Assembly: GCA_015272395.1 (NCBI GenBank)
Contig: JACYLQ010000011.1
Span: 62,001 to 126,000 of the forward strand
Reading direction: 5' to 3'
Length of the DNA: 64,000 bases
Origin: Calothrix sp. C42_A2020_038
GTDB lineage: Bacteria > Cyanobacteriota > Cyanobacteriia > Cyanobacteriales > Nostocaceae
The stretch's first letter is position 1; each line of letters begins with the position of its first letter. Below the pieces are notes generated by a model, which had not been told where the DNA came from, searched no databases, and saw only the letters and a program-made list of their open reading frames with translations. Below, piece by piece: positions 58,499 through 64,000 of this stretch. Both the position numbers and the translations under genes were made by a program.

Positions 58499-60007
58499 AT
58501 GGTTCGTGTACGGGCGCCAGAGCTACCACAAAATAATCCTTGGCTAAATACAGAGCAACCGTTGTCACTGAAAAAACTCAAGGGTCGAATTGTAATTTTA
58601 GATTTTTGGACTTACTGCTGTATCAACTGTTTACATATACTACCAGATTTAAAATATCTTGAACGAAAATATAAAGATAGCCTTACAGTTATTGGTGTAC
58701 ATTCTGCCAAATTTGACCATGAAAAAGATATCGAAAACATCCGTCAAGCTATTTTGCGTTACGATATCGAACACCCTGTTTTGGTAGACAGCGATTTTCA
58801 AGTGTGGCAACAATATGTAGCGCGCGCTTATCCTACCTTCGTGGTTATTGACCCTGAAGGATATGTTATTGCTTCTTTAATGGGAGAAGGAAAACGTGAT
58901 GTTTTAGAAAAGTTGATACAACAAATAATTCTCCAGCATCAAAACAAAGGTACAATCAGCCTTCAAGAACTAGATGTAATTTTAGAAAAACAAAAACAAC
59001 CATTAATTACACCATTAGCTTTTCCCGGTAAAGTTTTAGCAACAACTTCCTGTTTATTTATAGCAGACACAGGACATCATCGTATTGTTGTTACGACTTT
59101 AGAGGGTAATGTTTTACACCTAATTGGAACTGGAAAATCAGGACTGAAAGATGGTAATTTTACAACTGCTGAATTTTCGGCGCCGCAGGGAATGGTATTT
59201 GATAATCAAAATCAAATTCTCTATGTTGCCGATACCGAAAATCACACATTACGCAAAGTAGACTTACAACAGCAACTTGTAAAAACAATAGCAGGAACTG
59301 GTATACAAAACCGAAATCTAAATCTAACTCAAGGTAATAGTTTAGATACTCCTTTAAACTCTCCTTGGGATTTAGTCAAGTATGAAAATCAAGTTTACAT
59401 AGCAATGGCAGGTTCGCACCAAATTTGGATGATGGATTTAGAAAGCAGTATTATTAAAAATTATGCAGGTACTGGCGCCGAAGCTTGTTTTGATGGTGAG
59501 TTAGAAATAGCAGTATTTGCTCAACCAAGTGGTATTACAGTAAACAATAAACAACTATACGTAGCTGATAGTGAAAGTAGTTCAATTCGTTGTATTGGCT
59601 TAGAAACTGGGAAAGTCACTACAATTTGTGGAAGTGGTGACTTATATGGATTTGGTGATCAAGACGGTATTGGTGAAGGTGTTAGATTACAACATTGTCT
59701 TGGTATAGAATACGCCCAAGATAATCTTTGGGTAGCTGACACTTATAACCATAAAATCAAGTTAGTTAATCCCACAACACGAGAATGTAAAACTGTATTC
59801 GGTAATGGCGCCACTGGGTTGCAAGATAGTATAGATAGCGTGAAATTTTCTGAACCTTCAGGATTAAGCATTTCAGGTTCAAACTTATACATAGCTGATA
59901 CTAATAATCATGTCATTAAACATGTTAATTTAAACACTCTTAAAGTAACAACTCTAAAAATATCAGGTTTATGTGCGCCATACTTTTGTATTCCGGGTAG
60001 TATTTGA
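58499..60007 (+). CDS. Thioredoxin-like protein with NHL repeats (NHLRC2-like)
   Basis: The first 150 residues are a thioredoxin-fold (TlpA-like) domain with the unusual active site CCINC in ILDFWTYCCINCLHILPDL; residues 165-500 are an NHL beta-propeller (repeated pattern such as LYVADTENHTLRKVD, LWVADTYNHKIKLV, LYIADTNNHVIKHV). This matches the NHLRC2 architecture found from bacteria to humans. No signal peptide, so cytoplasmic. Substrate unknown. Confidence 0.9.
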   Translation: MVRVRAPELPQNNPWLNTEQPLSLKKLKGRIVILDFWTYCCINCLHILPDLKYLERKYKDSLTVIGVHSAKFDHEKDIENIRQAILRYDIEHPVLVDSDFQVWQQYVARAYPTFVVIDPEGYVIASLMGEGKRDVLEKLIQQIILQHQNKGTISLQELDVILEKQKQPLITPLAFPGKVLATTSCLFIADTGHHRIVVTTLEGNVLHLIGTGKSGLKDGNFTTAEFSAPQGMVFDNQNQILYVADTENHTLRKVDLQQQLVKTIAGTGIQNRNLNLTQGNSLDTPLNSPWDLVKYENQVYIAMAGSHQIWMMDLESSIIKNYAGTGAEACFDGELEIAVFAQPSGITVNNKQLYVADSESSSIRCIGLETGKVTTICGSGDLYGFGDQDGIGEGVRLQHCLGIEYAQDNLWVADTYNHKIKLVNPTTRECKTVFGNGATGLQDSIDSVKFSEPSGLSISGSNLYIADTNNHVIKHVNLNTLKVTTLKISGLCAPYFCIPGSI

Positions 60008-60531: not shown

Positions 60532-60982
60532 ACTATGAATATAATTTGGCGTTTGTAAATAAATAAGAACACCAATGATACTAATAGGTAAAAATCAACG
60601 AGATCGCTTGGCTAACTGTACGCGGTCAAAGCTATAGAAAAATTAATCTGCTTGTTCCATAATTTGAATTTCGGATTGGAATAATCTTAATTAGCAAGAG
60701 TAAATAAGACTTAATTAGAACTGAGTGTTACTGACATTTACTGACATTTACTAACATTTATAAATATTGAGAGAACCTCTAAGTATCTAAATATTTATTA
60801 GTCATTGACATTGCTCACGAATTAAAGGAAAGGTAAACAATACTTTAAAAAACAGTACTAGGCTCTGTTTAATATCACCCATGCGTATCAACGATAAATA
60901 TTGTTACTGGAGATATTGTATAATCCCCAATTAAAGATTATCCATTTTTAGCCATGAGAAAAAATTCACTGAGGATAATAAT
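60532..60982. other. Intergenic region with a small tandem repeat
   Basis: 450 bp without a gene. It contains three copies of a 10-bp unit (ttactgacat, last copy with one change) at 60728-60757. The promoter of the interrupted amidohydrolase gene should lie near its end. Confidence 0.5.
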
Positions 60983-61044
60983 GTGAAACGCCAACCACAG
61001 AAATACCATAGGCTATTGATTATTTTTGTCTGTACAGTATTTAT
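60983..61044 (+). pseudogene. 5' fragment (signal peptide) of the interrupted amidohydrolase gene
   Basis: A GTG at 60983, with GAGG eight bases upstream, begins KRQPQKYHRLLIIFVCTVF, the basic and hydrophobic start of a signal peptide. The frame breaks exactly at the insertion-sequence end. Joining it across the element to 62747 restores IAFAGQVALAQKNYRWG, completing a signal peptide with an ALA cleavage site, in the same frame as the amidohydrolase. Confidence 0.85.
61040..61044. repeat. Target-site duplication, left copy (TTTAT)
   Basis: The 5 bp TTTAT directly left of the element are repeated directly right of it at 62744-62748. Confidence 0.9.
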
Positions 61045-62743
61045 CCCACATTCCGCACCCCAGGCGCCACATGCAATAAATCAGTACTGGAAAACTATAA
61101 AGTACATTTGATAATTATGAATTTAATGAGAATTTATATTATTAATACTGGTTTTGATGTATTAATCAATTTTTACATGGTAAAATTTCAACACAATATT
61201 ATGAAGGAAAAAATTACTTTAAGTTATGTGTTGCACTAACTATAAACTAATTAAGTGTAATTTAAACAAATTTAACAAGAGTATAATAGTTTCACTTAAA
61301 CAGATAATGATTGGATGGCGCCTTTGCATCATTGATAGTTGTTTGCAGCTTGGGGCGCAAAATGTTAGTTCAAGCGTCGAAGCAACGATATTTAATTAAC
61401 AATAATGTTTTTAATGTTTTTTAGAATGCGCTACACTTATGCTCGTTCCTATTAAGTAGTATTATTAATATTAATATTTTTTTACTATCCACGTAAGTGC
61501 CAGAACATTAAAAATTACACAATCCAATATTCTAATCAAGCGGAGGCACGGTATCTAAAACTGCACCGACGCAAGGTAAACGGCGCCTCAAAGACACCTA
61601 AAAATGTGAAAATATAAATAAATACTTTACTAAATACCTACTGTATGTCTAATTTTAAAGATATTGAAGTTCAAAATCTTGACCATTTAGGTATAGTTGC
61701 GGGAATAATTGATTCAATTGGATTAGTAGAAATAATTAATAATTTATTAGGAACCGATGTTTCAGAAAAAATCAGTTCTGGACATGTAGTAAAAGCTATG
61801 ATTTTAAATGGGCTTGGTTTTGTTTCTAGCCCACTCTATATGTTTTCAAAATTTTTTGAAACGAAACCGTGTGAGCATTTAATAGGAGAAGGAATTAAAG
61901 CTGAGTATTTAAACGATGATAAATTGGGAAGAACATTAGATAAATTATTTGACCAAGGGCTAACAGAAACTTTTCTAGCTATAGCTTTGAATGCAATTGA
62001 AAAATTCTCAGTATCACTAATGATTCTATGATTTCTGAATATAAAGCACAGCAATCTTGTGAGAGAGGATTTGGATTTCTCAAAGACCCTTTATTCTTCA
62101 CTGATAGTGTTTTCTTAAAAAATCCCAAAAGGGTAGAAGCTTTAGCTTTTATTATGGCTTTATGTTTACTTGTTTATACTCTTGCACAGCGACAATTGCG
62201 ACTAGCTTTAAGCCATGTAAAATCTACTATAAAAAACCAGCTAGGTAAACCAACAACTTCTCCAACAATGCGTTGGGTATTTCAATGCTTTCAATCCATT
62301 CATATTCTTGTACTTAATGATGAAAAACAAATATCCAATTTAACCGAGGATAGGCTATTCATACTCAGCCTTTTACCAGAAAATTGCCGACAATATTATT
62401 ATTGTTAAATTAATGCACTAATTTAATATAAATTATTTTTACAAAGAGCGGGTTCCTCATTGTTCTCGCTCTTAATCAACATATTTTTAAATTATCTTTA
62501 TATCTCAACAAGATTAATAAAATTAAAAATCACTAGGGTTTATATAAGATTTAATTATTTAACTAGTATTCATGTCTCTTCAAATTTTTATGAAACCTTA
62601 TTGTTAATTATTGAGAATGGATTAGTCCTAGCAAAAACACGAATATTTACCTTTTACGGAGATTCAAAGTATTATTTAATTCTGTTTTGCTTTCTTTAGC
62701 TCAGTAAAACCCTCATGTGGCGCCTAGGGGTGCGGAATGTGGG
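61045..62743. mobile_element. Insertion sequence, transposase internally deleted (IS1634-like)
   Basis: Boundaries are sharp: terminal inverted repeats of 29/30 bp (61045-61073 and 62714-62743; outer part CCCACATTCCGCACCCC, inner part AGGCGCCACATG, one base indel) and 5-bp TTTAT duplications. Inside lies a transposase gene of the DUF4277/IS1634 type in two fragments. The element is 1699 bp. The left 570 bp (61074-61644) and right 300 bp (62409-62713) hold no recognised gene; a small C-terminal-like frame ends at about 61617. Confidence 0.85.
61645..62408 (+). pseudogene. IS1634-family (DUF4277) transposase, internal deletion
   Basis: The first piece (61645-62031, 128 residues) is the DUF4277 N-terminal domain (LDHLGIVAGIIDSIGLVEII, FSKFFETKPCEHLIGEGI). 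The second (62028-62408, 126 residues) is the C-terminal end (YKAQQSCERGFGFLKDPLFF, ALAFIMALCLLVYTLAQRQL). The pieces lie in different frames and about half of the usual length, including the DDE catalytic core, is missing. The transposase cannot be active, so the element can move only in trans. Confidence 0.85.
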
Positions 62744-64000
62744 TTTATTGCCTTTGCGGGTCAGGTAGCCCTCGCTCAGAAAAATTACCGCTGGGGCAAT
62801 CAATCCAGACAAAAAGTAGAGTTGATTGTAGGTGGTGATTTTGTTATCACCATGAATGAAGCACAACCTGTAATTGAGAATGGTGCAATTGCGATCAAGG
62901 ACGGCAAAATTGTAGCAGTAGATACACAAGACAAAATTATGGCAGCTTACAGATCTGCCAGAAGGATACCAGGTGAGGGTATGGTACTGATGCCCGGTCT
63001 TGTTAATGGTCACTCTCATTCAGCAATGGTGTTGTTTCGCGGTCTTGCGGACGACTTGAAGTTAGAAGATTGGTTGCAAAATTATATATTTCCCGCAGAA
63101 GGACGGTTTGTTAACGAGAATTTCATCCGCGTTGGTGAAGAACTTGCTTGCTGGGAGATGATTCGTAGTGGAACCACGACATTCGTTGATATGTACTTCA
63201 AGCCAGATGTTGCCGCGAAAGTGGTTGATAAATGCGGCTTGCGGGCTTTGATTGCACCTTCGTCTATAGATTTTCCCAGTCCTGGTTTTCAAGGATGGGA
63301 TGATGCGTTTGCCTCGGCAGTAGATTTCGTGAAACGCTGGAAAGGAAAACACCCACGAATTATACCAGGCCTAGCTCCACACGCTCCCTATACTGTCTCG
63401 CCAGAGCATCTGACACAGGCAATTCAAGCTGCACGTCAATACGATGTGCCATTGACAATTCACCTTGCAGAGACACAAACCGAAGTCAAAGACATCCAGC
63501 AGCGTTATAATGCAACCCCAGTGCAACACCTGGAAAATCTGGGTTTTCTCGATCCGCGCGTCTTTGCTGCCCATGTAGTATGGCCTAACGAAAGTGAAAT
63601 CGCTCTAATGGCGAAACGTGGTGTCGGTGTCATCCATAATCCTGAATCAAATTTGAAATTAGCTTCTGGCTTTGCACCACTTCCGGCAATGGTGAAGGCG
63701 GGAATTCAGGTTGGTTTAGGTACAGATGGCGCCGCATCGAACAATGATTTGGATATGTGGGAAGCTATCCGTCTTACTGCACTTATCCATAAAGGAACAA
63801 CACTCGACCCAACCACTTTACCTGCCAAGACAGTTTTACAAATGGCAACTTTGGGAGGCGCTGAAGCGCTAGGGTTGGCGGATAAAATTGGTGCTATTAA
63901 GGTGGGACTCCAAGCAGATGTAATTCAAGTAGACCTTACAGAAGCACACCTTACCCCTCTTTACGATGTCATTTCCCATCTTGTTTATGCAGGGAAAGCT
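62717..64000 (+). CDS. TRZ/ATZ-family amidohydrolase (MTA/SAH deaminase-like), 5' end cut off, 3' end beyond window
   Basis: The frame from 62747 reads a periplasmic-type N-terminus and then ELIVGGDFVITMNE, the metal-ligand motif GHSHSAMVLFRGLADD, HLAETQTEVKDI and GTDGAASNNDLDMWEA, all features of 5-methylthioadenosine/S-adenosylhomocysteine deaminases (MtaD-like). A GTG at 62717, inside the right inverted repeat, could restart translation. The original start and half of the signal peptide lie on the far side of the insertion sequence. The gene continues past the window end. Confidence 0.88.
   Translation, partial: MAPRGAECGFIAFAGQVALAQKNYRWGNQSRQKVELIVGGDFVITMNEAQPVIENGAIAIKDGKIVAVDTQDKIMAAYRSARRIPGEGMVLMPGLVNGHSHSAMVLFRGLADDLKLEDWLQNYIFPAEGRFVNENFIRVGEELACWEMIRSGTTTFVDMYFKPDVAAKVVDKCGLRALIAPSSIDFPSPGFQGWDDAFASAVDFVKRWKGKHPRIIPGLAPHAPYTVSPEHLTQAIQAARQYDVPLTIHLAETQTEVKDIQQRYNATPVQHLENLGFLDPRVFAAHVVWPNESEIALMAKRGVGVIHNPESNLKLASGFAPLPAMVKAGIQVGLGTDGAASNNDLDMWEAIRLTALIHKGTTLDPTTLPAKTVLQMATLGGAEALGLADKIGAIKVGLQADVIQVDLTEAHLTPLYDVISHLVYAGKA
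62744..62748. repeat. Target-site duplication, right copy (TTTAT)
   Basis: Direct repeat of the 5 bp left of the element at 61040-61044; the duplicated bases also code for part of the signal peptide. Confidence 0.9.

What the first reader, a model, noticed from the sequence alone, without database searches (positions are those of the whole stretch)
60983..64000. Insertion sequence disrupts the signal peptide of an exported amidohydrolase
The element from 61045 to 62743 has 29/30 bp terminal inverted repeats and TTTAT duplications. Removing it with one TTTAT copy fuses the frame beginning at the GTG of 60983 with the amidohydrolase frame, giving a basic start, a hydrophobic core and an ALA cleavage site, followed by the mature enzyme. 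So an enzyme of the normally cytoplasmic MTA/SAH-deaminase family was apparently exported and has been cut precisely in its export signal. A GTG inside the right repeat offers a restart that would keep most of the hydrophobic stretch, so the protein may now be mislocalised rather than lost.
Basis: partly seen in the sequence, partly recalled or inferred. Interest (0 to 1): 0.75.

Follow-up and report, generated by a model that had tools for sequence, protein, structure and literature searches.

The report
Jumping element splits exported enzyme's signal
In a cyanobacterium a crippled transposable element has landed in the part of a gene that tells the cell to export the enzyme, so an enzyme that relatives appear to send out of the cytoplasm is probably no longer exported here; the event itself is ordinary, but the exported enzyme group deserves a look.

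Summary
Window 61045-62743 is a 1,699-bp element with 29/30-nt inverted ends and a TTTAT duplication, inside the signal-peptide codons of an amidohydrolase gene. The vacant site exists in four relatives examined; 28 of 28 readable Nostocaceae copies (29 loci, one cut) have a signal-like start. The element is an IS1634-family deletion derivative: about 890 bp is missing against a relative's copy, and no transposase match in the own assembly passes the family cut-off. New: the gene was gained laterally (dS 0.26 against 2.3 for AtzE), and non-cyanobacterial members lie near nucleoside-salvage genes in 36 of 65 loci, suggesting a periplasmic purine-nucleoside deaminase. Ordinary insertion; modest interest.

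The parts
60909..60982 (+). 5' flank of the amidohydrolase shared with G018, with a GAGG ribosome-site-like stretch before the GTG
   Evidence: blastn match to L045 from 60909; start contexts printed
60983..61044 (+). Signal-peptide coding part of the amidohydrolase (basic start and most of the hydrophobic core), GTG start
   Evidence: joined frame and relatives' frames
61040..61044 (.). Left copy of target duplication TTTAT
61045..62743 (+). IS1634-family element, internally deleted, non-autonomous
   Evidence: inverted ends; transposase remnants; about 889 bp missing against the G001 copy
61045..61073 (+). Left terminal inverted repeat, 29 nt
61645..62031 (+). Transposase N-terminal remnant (DUF4277; NF033559 positions 2-131)
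62028..62408 (+). Transposase C-terminal remnant (NF033559 positions 375-480), in another reading frame
62714..62743 (+). Right terminal inverted repeat, 30 nt; holds the GTG of 62717
62717..62719 (+). Possible restart GTG, no ribosome-site-like stretch before it
62744..62748 (.). Right copy of target duplication TTTAT
62749..64000 (+). Rest of the amidohydrolase (end of signal peptide, cleavage-site-like ALA, mature enzyme); its stop lies outside the window at 64141
60983..61111 (+). Present product of the original start: 42 codons and the stop at 61109-61111 inside the element

Best explanation
A laterally acquired gene for an exported amidohydrolase (MTA/SAH-deaminase-like, most likely a periplasmic purine-nucleoside deaminase) has been interrupted by a non-autonomous, internally deleted IS1634-family element that landed inside the signal-peptide codons with a 5-bp target duplication. 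The original start now makes only a 42-residue peptide that ends in the element. Any enzyme still made must start inside or after the element without a proper export signal, so export is lost; the enzyme is either not made or stays in the cytoplasm. Shown: the element, its ends, the duplication, the deletion, the vacant sites, the conserved signal-like start, the signs of lateral gain. Inferred: the substrate, actual export in relatives, the loss of export here, the recency.
For: Ends and duplication; vacant sites in four relatives; signal-like start in 28 of 28 readable Nostocaceae copies out of 29 loci; transposase in two pieces, profile positions 2-131 and 375-480 of 483; the G001 copy is 2,269 bp between its ends and has 889 bp that are absent here; no IS1634 transposase match over the curated cut-off in the own assembly. 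Lateral gain: G000-G018 dS 0.255 for this gene against 2.291 for AtzE, while four congeners (G002-G005) give AtzE dS 0.80-0.89; G000 groups with G018 (89/89) away from congeners G002 and G003 in a 23-row tree; congeners have the flanking genes without it. One copy in the genome, the other hit being a 39% homologue. Function: nucleoside-salvage genes near 36 of 65 non-cyanobacterial loci.
Against: No expression, localisation or read data. The enzyme frame shows no decay: 15 synonymous and 1 non-synonymous change fall on the G000 side by strict polarisation, which fits a recent insertion but also a product still in use. The restart protein passes the threshold of my loose signal heuristic (mean 1.81, threshold 1.6), so weak export is not excluded. 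Promoter-like pairs are more frequent here than in shuffles (22 against 12.0, sd 3.6). None of 24 cyanobacterial loci has the nucleoside-salvage neighbours, so the function rests on distant relatives. The G001 yardstick copy has its own transposase in two frames, so it is not an intact reference.
Confidence: 0.85

Rival explanations
1. The enzyme is still made from the GTG of 62717 with a promoter in the element and works in the cytoplasm: relocation instead of loss.
For: Frame open from 62717 for 474 codons; it holds the whole enzyme core; strong constraint on the enzyme frame (1 non-synonymous of 16 polarised changes on this side); promoter-like pairs exceed the shuffles (22 against 12.0, sd 3.6) and one lies at 62646-62675 before the GTG.
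Against: No ribosome-site-like stretch before 62717. Each promoter-like pair matches only 9 of 12 consensus bases. Constraint is equally explained by a recent insertion.
Confidence: 0.2
2. Assembly artefact: the element was joined to the gene wrongly.
For: Other copies of the element sit at contig ends (last 51-55 bp of C6, first 55 bp of C11), so the assembly does break at this repeat.
Against: This copy lies inside a 138-kb contig, differs from the C42 copy (93%), and has a perfect 5-bp duplication that a misjoin would not be expected to make.
Confidence: 0.04
3. The upstream GTG frame is a chance frame and the enzyme always began near the present GTG of 62717, in the cytoplasm.
For: More distant homologues have no room for a leader before the enzyme core.
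Against: Relatives have the uninterrupted signal-like start at the same place, DNA included; the 62717 GTG belongs to the element.
Confidence: 0.01

Closest known systems
IS1634 family insertion sequences (NF033559, DUF4277 transposases)
   Same: Both transposase ends match the family profile; inverted ends; short AT-rich target duplication. PMC4549789 (passages seen) has cyanobacterial members in its transposase tree and gives 6-base sequences, called inverted repeats in the legend, for three copies.
   Different: Profile positions about 132-374 are missing and the two remnants are in different frames, so it is a non-autonomous derivative.
MTA/SAH deaminases of the TRZ/ATZ amidohydrolase group (PDB 4f0r; PRK09045)
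   Same: Whole enzyme aligns, E 9.8e-110 to 4f0r; PRK09045 500 bits over the length.
   Different: Below the PRK09045 curated cut-off of 540 bits; relatives carry a signal-like start; substrate not tested.
Scavenging of extracellular DNA and nucleosides in marine bacteria (PMC8289736, search listing and start of abstract only)
   Same: In proteobacterial relatives the gene lies near NupC, phosphopentomutase or thymidine phosphorylase genes.
   Different: I did not read whether that paper treats this enzyme; the cyanobacterial loci lack these neighbours.

Membership tests
IS1634 family | Transposase of the family | tested here: met
   Two remnants match NF033559 at 2.9e-24 and 1.5e-26 (85.9 and 93.5 bits, each under the 100-bit cut-off meant for a whole protein); DUF4277 154 bits over its cut-off of 25.4
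IS1634 family | Complete transposase able to move the element | tested here: not met
   Positions about 132-374 missing; 889 bp absent against the G001 copy
IS1634 family | Terminal inverted repeats and short target duplication | tested here: met
   29/30 nt and TTTAT
Amidohydrolase superfamily, TRZ/ATZ group | Amidohydro_1 domain over cut-off | tested here: met
   233 bits against 25
MTA/SAH deaminase | Equivalog-level match | tested here: not met
   Full-length frame: best NCBIfam PRK09045 500.3 bits under 540; the 5'-deoxyadenosine and MTA/SAH deaminase equivalogs score 368 and 304, under 522 and 779
MTA/SAH deaminase | Deaminase activity on MTA, SAH or adenosine | not testable with these tools
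   No assay; inferred from the alignment to 4f0r and neighbours
Sec-exported protein | Basic start, hydrophobic core, cleavage-like site in the uninterrupted gene | tested here: met
   Hydrophobic mean 3.23, charge +4 for the joined start; 28 of 28 readable relatives; own heuristic, not a trained predictor
Sec-exported protein | Export signal intact in this genome | tested here: not met
   Cut by the element; restart 1.81 and charge 0
Sec-exported protein | Protein found outside the cytoplasm | not testable with these tools
   No localisation data

The most novel reading that the evidence does not exclude
A little-described clade of MTA/SAH-deaminase-like amidohydrolases is exported (Sec signal or lipoprotein) and works as a periplasmic purine-nucleoside deaminase in nucleoside scavenging; in Nostocaceae it travels as a lone gene between genera, and in this strain an element has turned it back into a cytoplasmic enzyme.
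Probability: 0.3. Interest if true: 0.5.

Novelty: new member of a known kind. Interest (0 to 1): 0.33.

Why it matters
Insertions that cut export signals are a simple way in which a protein can lose or change its place in the cell; this one is clean enough (vacant sites, enzyme frame undecayed) to test loss against relocation. The by-product is of more general use: a deaminase clade with export signals in cyanobacteria and proteobacteria, with a testable role in taking nucleosides from the surroundings.

Tried and rejected
Operon with AbgT-AtzG-AtzE: the genes after the amidohydrolase (AbgT-family transporter, AtzG-like, AtzE-like) suggested a pathway, but in congeners G001-G004 and G006 they stand near the NHL gene without the amidohydrolase, and in the 16-kb regions of 8 relatives with the gene none of the three was found (E up to 1e-8). 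Rejected as a functional link.

A conserved cyanobacterial neighbourhood: weak. In nine genomes one small gene lies just upstream in three (L047, L048, L051) and one further gene is shared by two (L047, L048); the other neighbours are unshared.

Plasmid carriage: 50 plasmid records match, all under 60% identity (15 listed, 35.9-42.7%), so no close copy.

First version of the homologue control gave 0 of 22; for two (L027, L041) the alignment ran across a stop, so I redid it: 1 of 22 passes, L035 at exactly the threshold and with the enzyme's own first strand; in 20 of 22 a metal-binding-type motif was found, and these have only 61-79 residues from the upstream stop to it, against 109-156 in 8 exported ones.

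Papers: seven searches. Searches returned 0 papers; one search listed 15 of 34 and one search listed 2, and no listed title or abstract start named an exported clade of this enzyme. Only passages of PMC4549789 were seen. This says nothing about papers outside the held library.

The element's leader (element bases about 28-599) matched only copies in the own genome in the listing, but that search scored two candidates per genome and its list is cut, so this is no proof of absence.

Full report
What is there. The window lies in a 6.53-Mb, 50-contig genome (G000:C31:62001-126000). Its genus group in the held set includes G003, whose contig length (947,126) equals that of Dulcicalothrix desertica PCC 7102, so it is a cyanobacterium near that organism. 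At 61045-62743 stands a 1,699-bp element with ends of 29 and 30 nt that differ by one extra base, flanked by TTTAT on both sides.

The site is vacant in relatives. One search prints these four sites: 34 of 35 left and 31 of 35 right flank bases agree with G018.

The element. The two open frames match the start (positions 2-131) and the end (375-480) of the IS1634 transposase profile. The copy in G001, with both ends, is 2,269 bp long (L259 1400-3668) and has 889 bp where this one has none; its leader is shorter and its own transposase is in two frames, so it too is not an intact element. No place in the own assembly passes the family cut-off; three partial matches were found, two of them this element. 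Other copies in the genome: C42 (left 708 bases, 93%), the end of C6 and the start of C11, the last two at contig ends, so an intact copy lost in assembly gaps is not excluded. The middle of the protein, where the first catalytic residues of such transposases lie (recalled, not tested), is gone, so the element could only be moved by another copy. Whether the deletion came before or after the insertion is open. Of 217 genomes of the family, 150 have a match to the element's DNA (two candidates scored per genome).

The gene. Pfam Amidohydro_1 at 233 bits; nearest curated family PRK09045, 500 bits for the full frame, under its cut-off of 540; nearest solved structure 4f0r, an MTA/SAH deaminase. 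The genome has one copy; the other hit is a 39% homologue. Of 217 family genomes, 30 hold a close copy, own one included, at E up to 1e-100. Of the 29 others, one is cut by a contig end and 28 of 28 have a signal-like start. Of 80 loci from named genomes (the best 80 of 250 found; 15 are cyanobacterial and overlap with the 29), 2 are cut, 77 of 78 pass and 1 fails (L079); without the cyanobacterial ones 62 of 63 pass, and 17 carry a lipobox by the pattern used. Control: 22 more distant homologues (31-39% identical) give 0 of 22 and 1 of 22 in the corrected (L035, at exactly the threshold). The heuristic takes the best start among ATG, GTG and TTG and is generous to both sets. In four loci (L060, L075, L244, L251) it chose a start inside the core; the longer start is visible for L060 and L075.

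What the insertion does. The original GTG has GAGG upstream, shared with G018, and now reads 42 codons to a stop at 61109 in the element. The next start in the enzyme frame is the GTG of 62717, in the right repeat; its upstream bases are AGTAAAACCCTCAT. It leaves a hydrophobic stretch with a best 12-residue mean of 1.81 and net charge 0, against 3.23 and +4. Promoter-like pairs are more frequent between 60700 and 63000 than in dinucleotide-preserving shuffles (22 against 12.0, sd 3.6), each at 9 of 12 matches; this leaves transcription out of the element possible. I take loss of export as most likely; loss of the protein and cytoplasmic relocation cannot be told apart from sequence.

Where the gene came from. 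In congeners the NHL/thioredoxin-like gene of 58499-60004 and the AbgT gene lie 0.4 to 2.7 kb apart (matches in G001, G002, G003, G004 and G006) against 4.4 kb here; in G005 they lie on different contigs. No blastn match (E up to 1e-4) is found in the seven congener loci between window bases 60547 and 64257. The gene is 92% identical to G018 at DNA level with dS 0.255, while AtzE of the same two genomes has dS 2.29 (near saturation); against four congeners AtzE dS is 0.80-0.89 and this gene's is 1.17 and 1.02 (G002, G003). In a 23-row tree G000 joins G018 with 89/89 support, under the 95/80 star, inside a well-supported group that leaves out G002 and G003. So the gene was very probably moved between genera as a stretch little larger than itself. 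AtzE is the only yardstick gene used. Strict polarisation with three outgroups gives 15 synonymous and 1 non-synonymous change on the G000 side, 8 and 9 on the G018 side. Whether the element came in before or after the gene reached this genome is not shown; relatives of the element elsewhere in the genome favour after.

What the enzyme does. In 65 non-cyanobacterial loci with up to 4 kb on each side, phosphopentomutase occurs in 22, a NupC-type nucleoside transporter in 16, thymidine phosphorylase in 14, a phosphoribosyltransferase in 11, a xanthine/uracil-type permease in 7; at least one in 36. The five were picked after clustering the neighbours of the same loci, where other recurrent neighbours also appear: a 138-residue protein without Pfam match (13 loci), TonB-type receptor (11), PhyH (11), DUF985 cupin (8). 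The homologue control (22 loci, shorter 1.5-kb flanks, 89 kb) has one such gene, the 24 cyanobacterial loci (283 kb, with overlaps) none. The 65 loci are related to each other, so these are not 36 independent cases. The simplest reading is deamination of purine nucleosides outside the cytoplasm. This is inference.

Literature. PMC4549789 (passages) reports an IS1634 member rising from one to three copies in an Acidiphilium culture, and shows cyanobacterial members. Searches on the exported enzyme listed nothing direct. Verdict: a correct and well-described finding, an ordinary insertion of a crippled element, with an exported enzyme clade as the more interesting by-product.

Noticed in passing
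L066-L133 (loci without the cyanobacterial ones): Relatives of the amidohydrolase stand near phosphopentomutase, NupC-type, thymidine phosphorylase, phosphoribosyltransferase or purine-type permease genes in 36 of 65 loci.
   Followed up: partly
L053 8359-11656 (window numbering 64359-67656): AbgT-family transporter, AtzG-like and AtzE-like genes follow the amidohydrolase and are kept near each other in congeners without it.
   Followed up: partly
G000 C6 end (L011) and C11 start (L012): Two contigs end inside copies of the same element (last 51-55 and first 55 bases), so the assembly breaks at this repeat; the two may be one truncated copy.
   Followed up: partly
G000 C42:48375-49139 (L010 4381-5140): Truncated copy of the element, left 708 bases at 93% with about 52 extra bases, 2.4 kb from a phosphoketolase-like gene (name recalled); by eye, a gene with the same start stands beside the amidohydrolase in congener G002.
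   Followed up: no
window 61073-61643: Element leader of about 570 bp before the transposase remnant; matches seen only in copies of the own genome (one search is a capped listing).
   Followed up: no
L047 6145-6708, L048 5987-6535, L051 6728-7291: In three relatives a related small gene with a signal-like start stands just upstream of the amidohydrolase.
   Followed up: no
L053 11846-13117: Protein with an AMIN domain and a Beta-lactamase2 domain, under the curated cut-offs of all 25 beta-lactamase families shown (of 88 matched).
   Followed up: no
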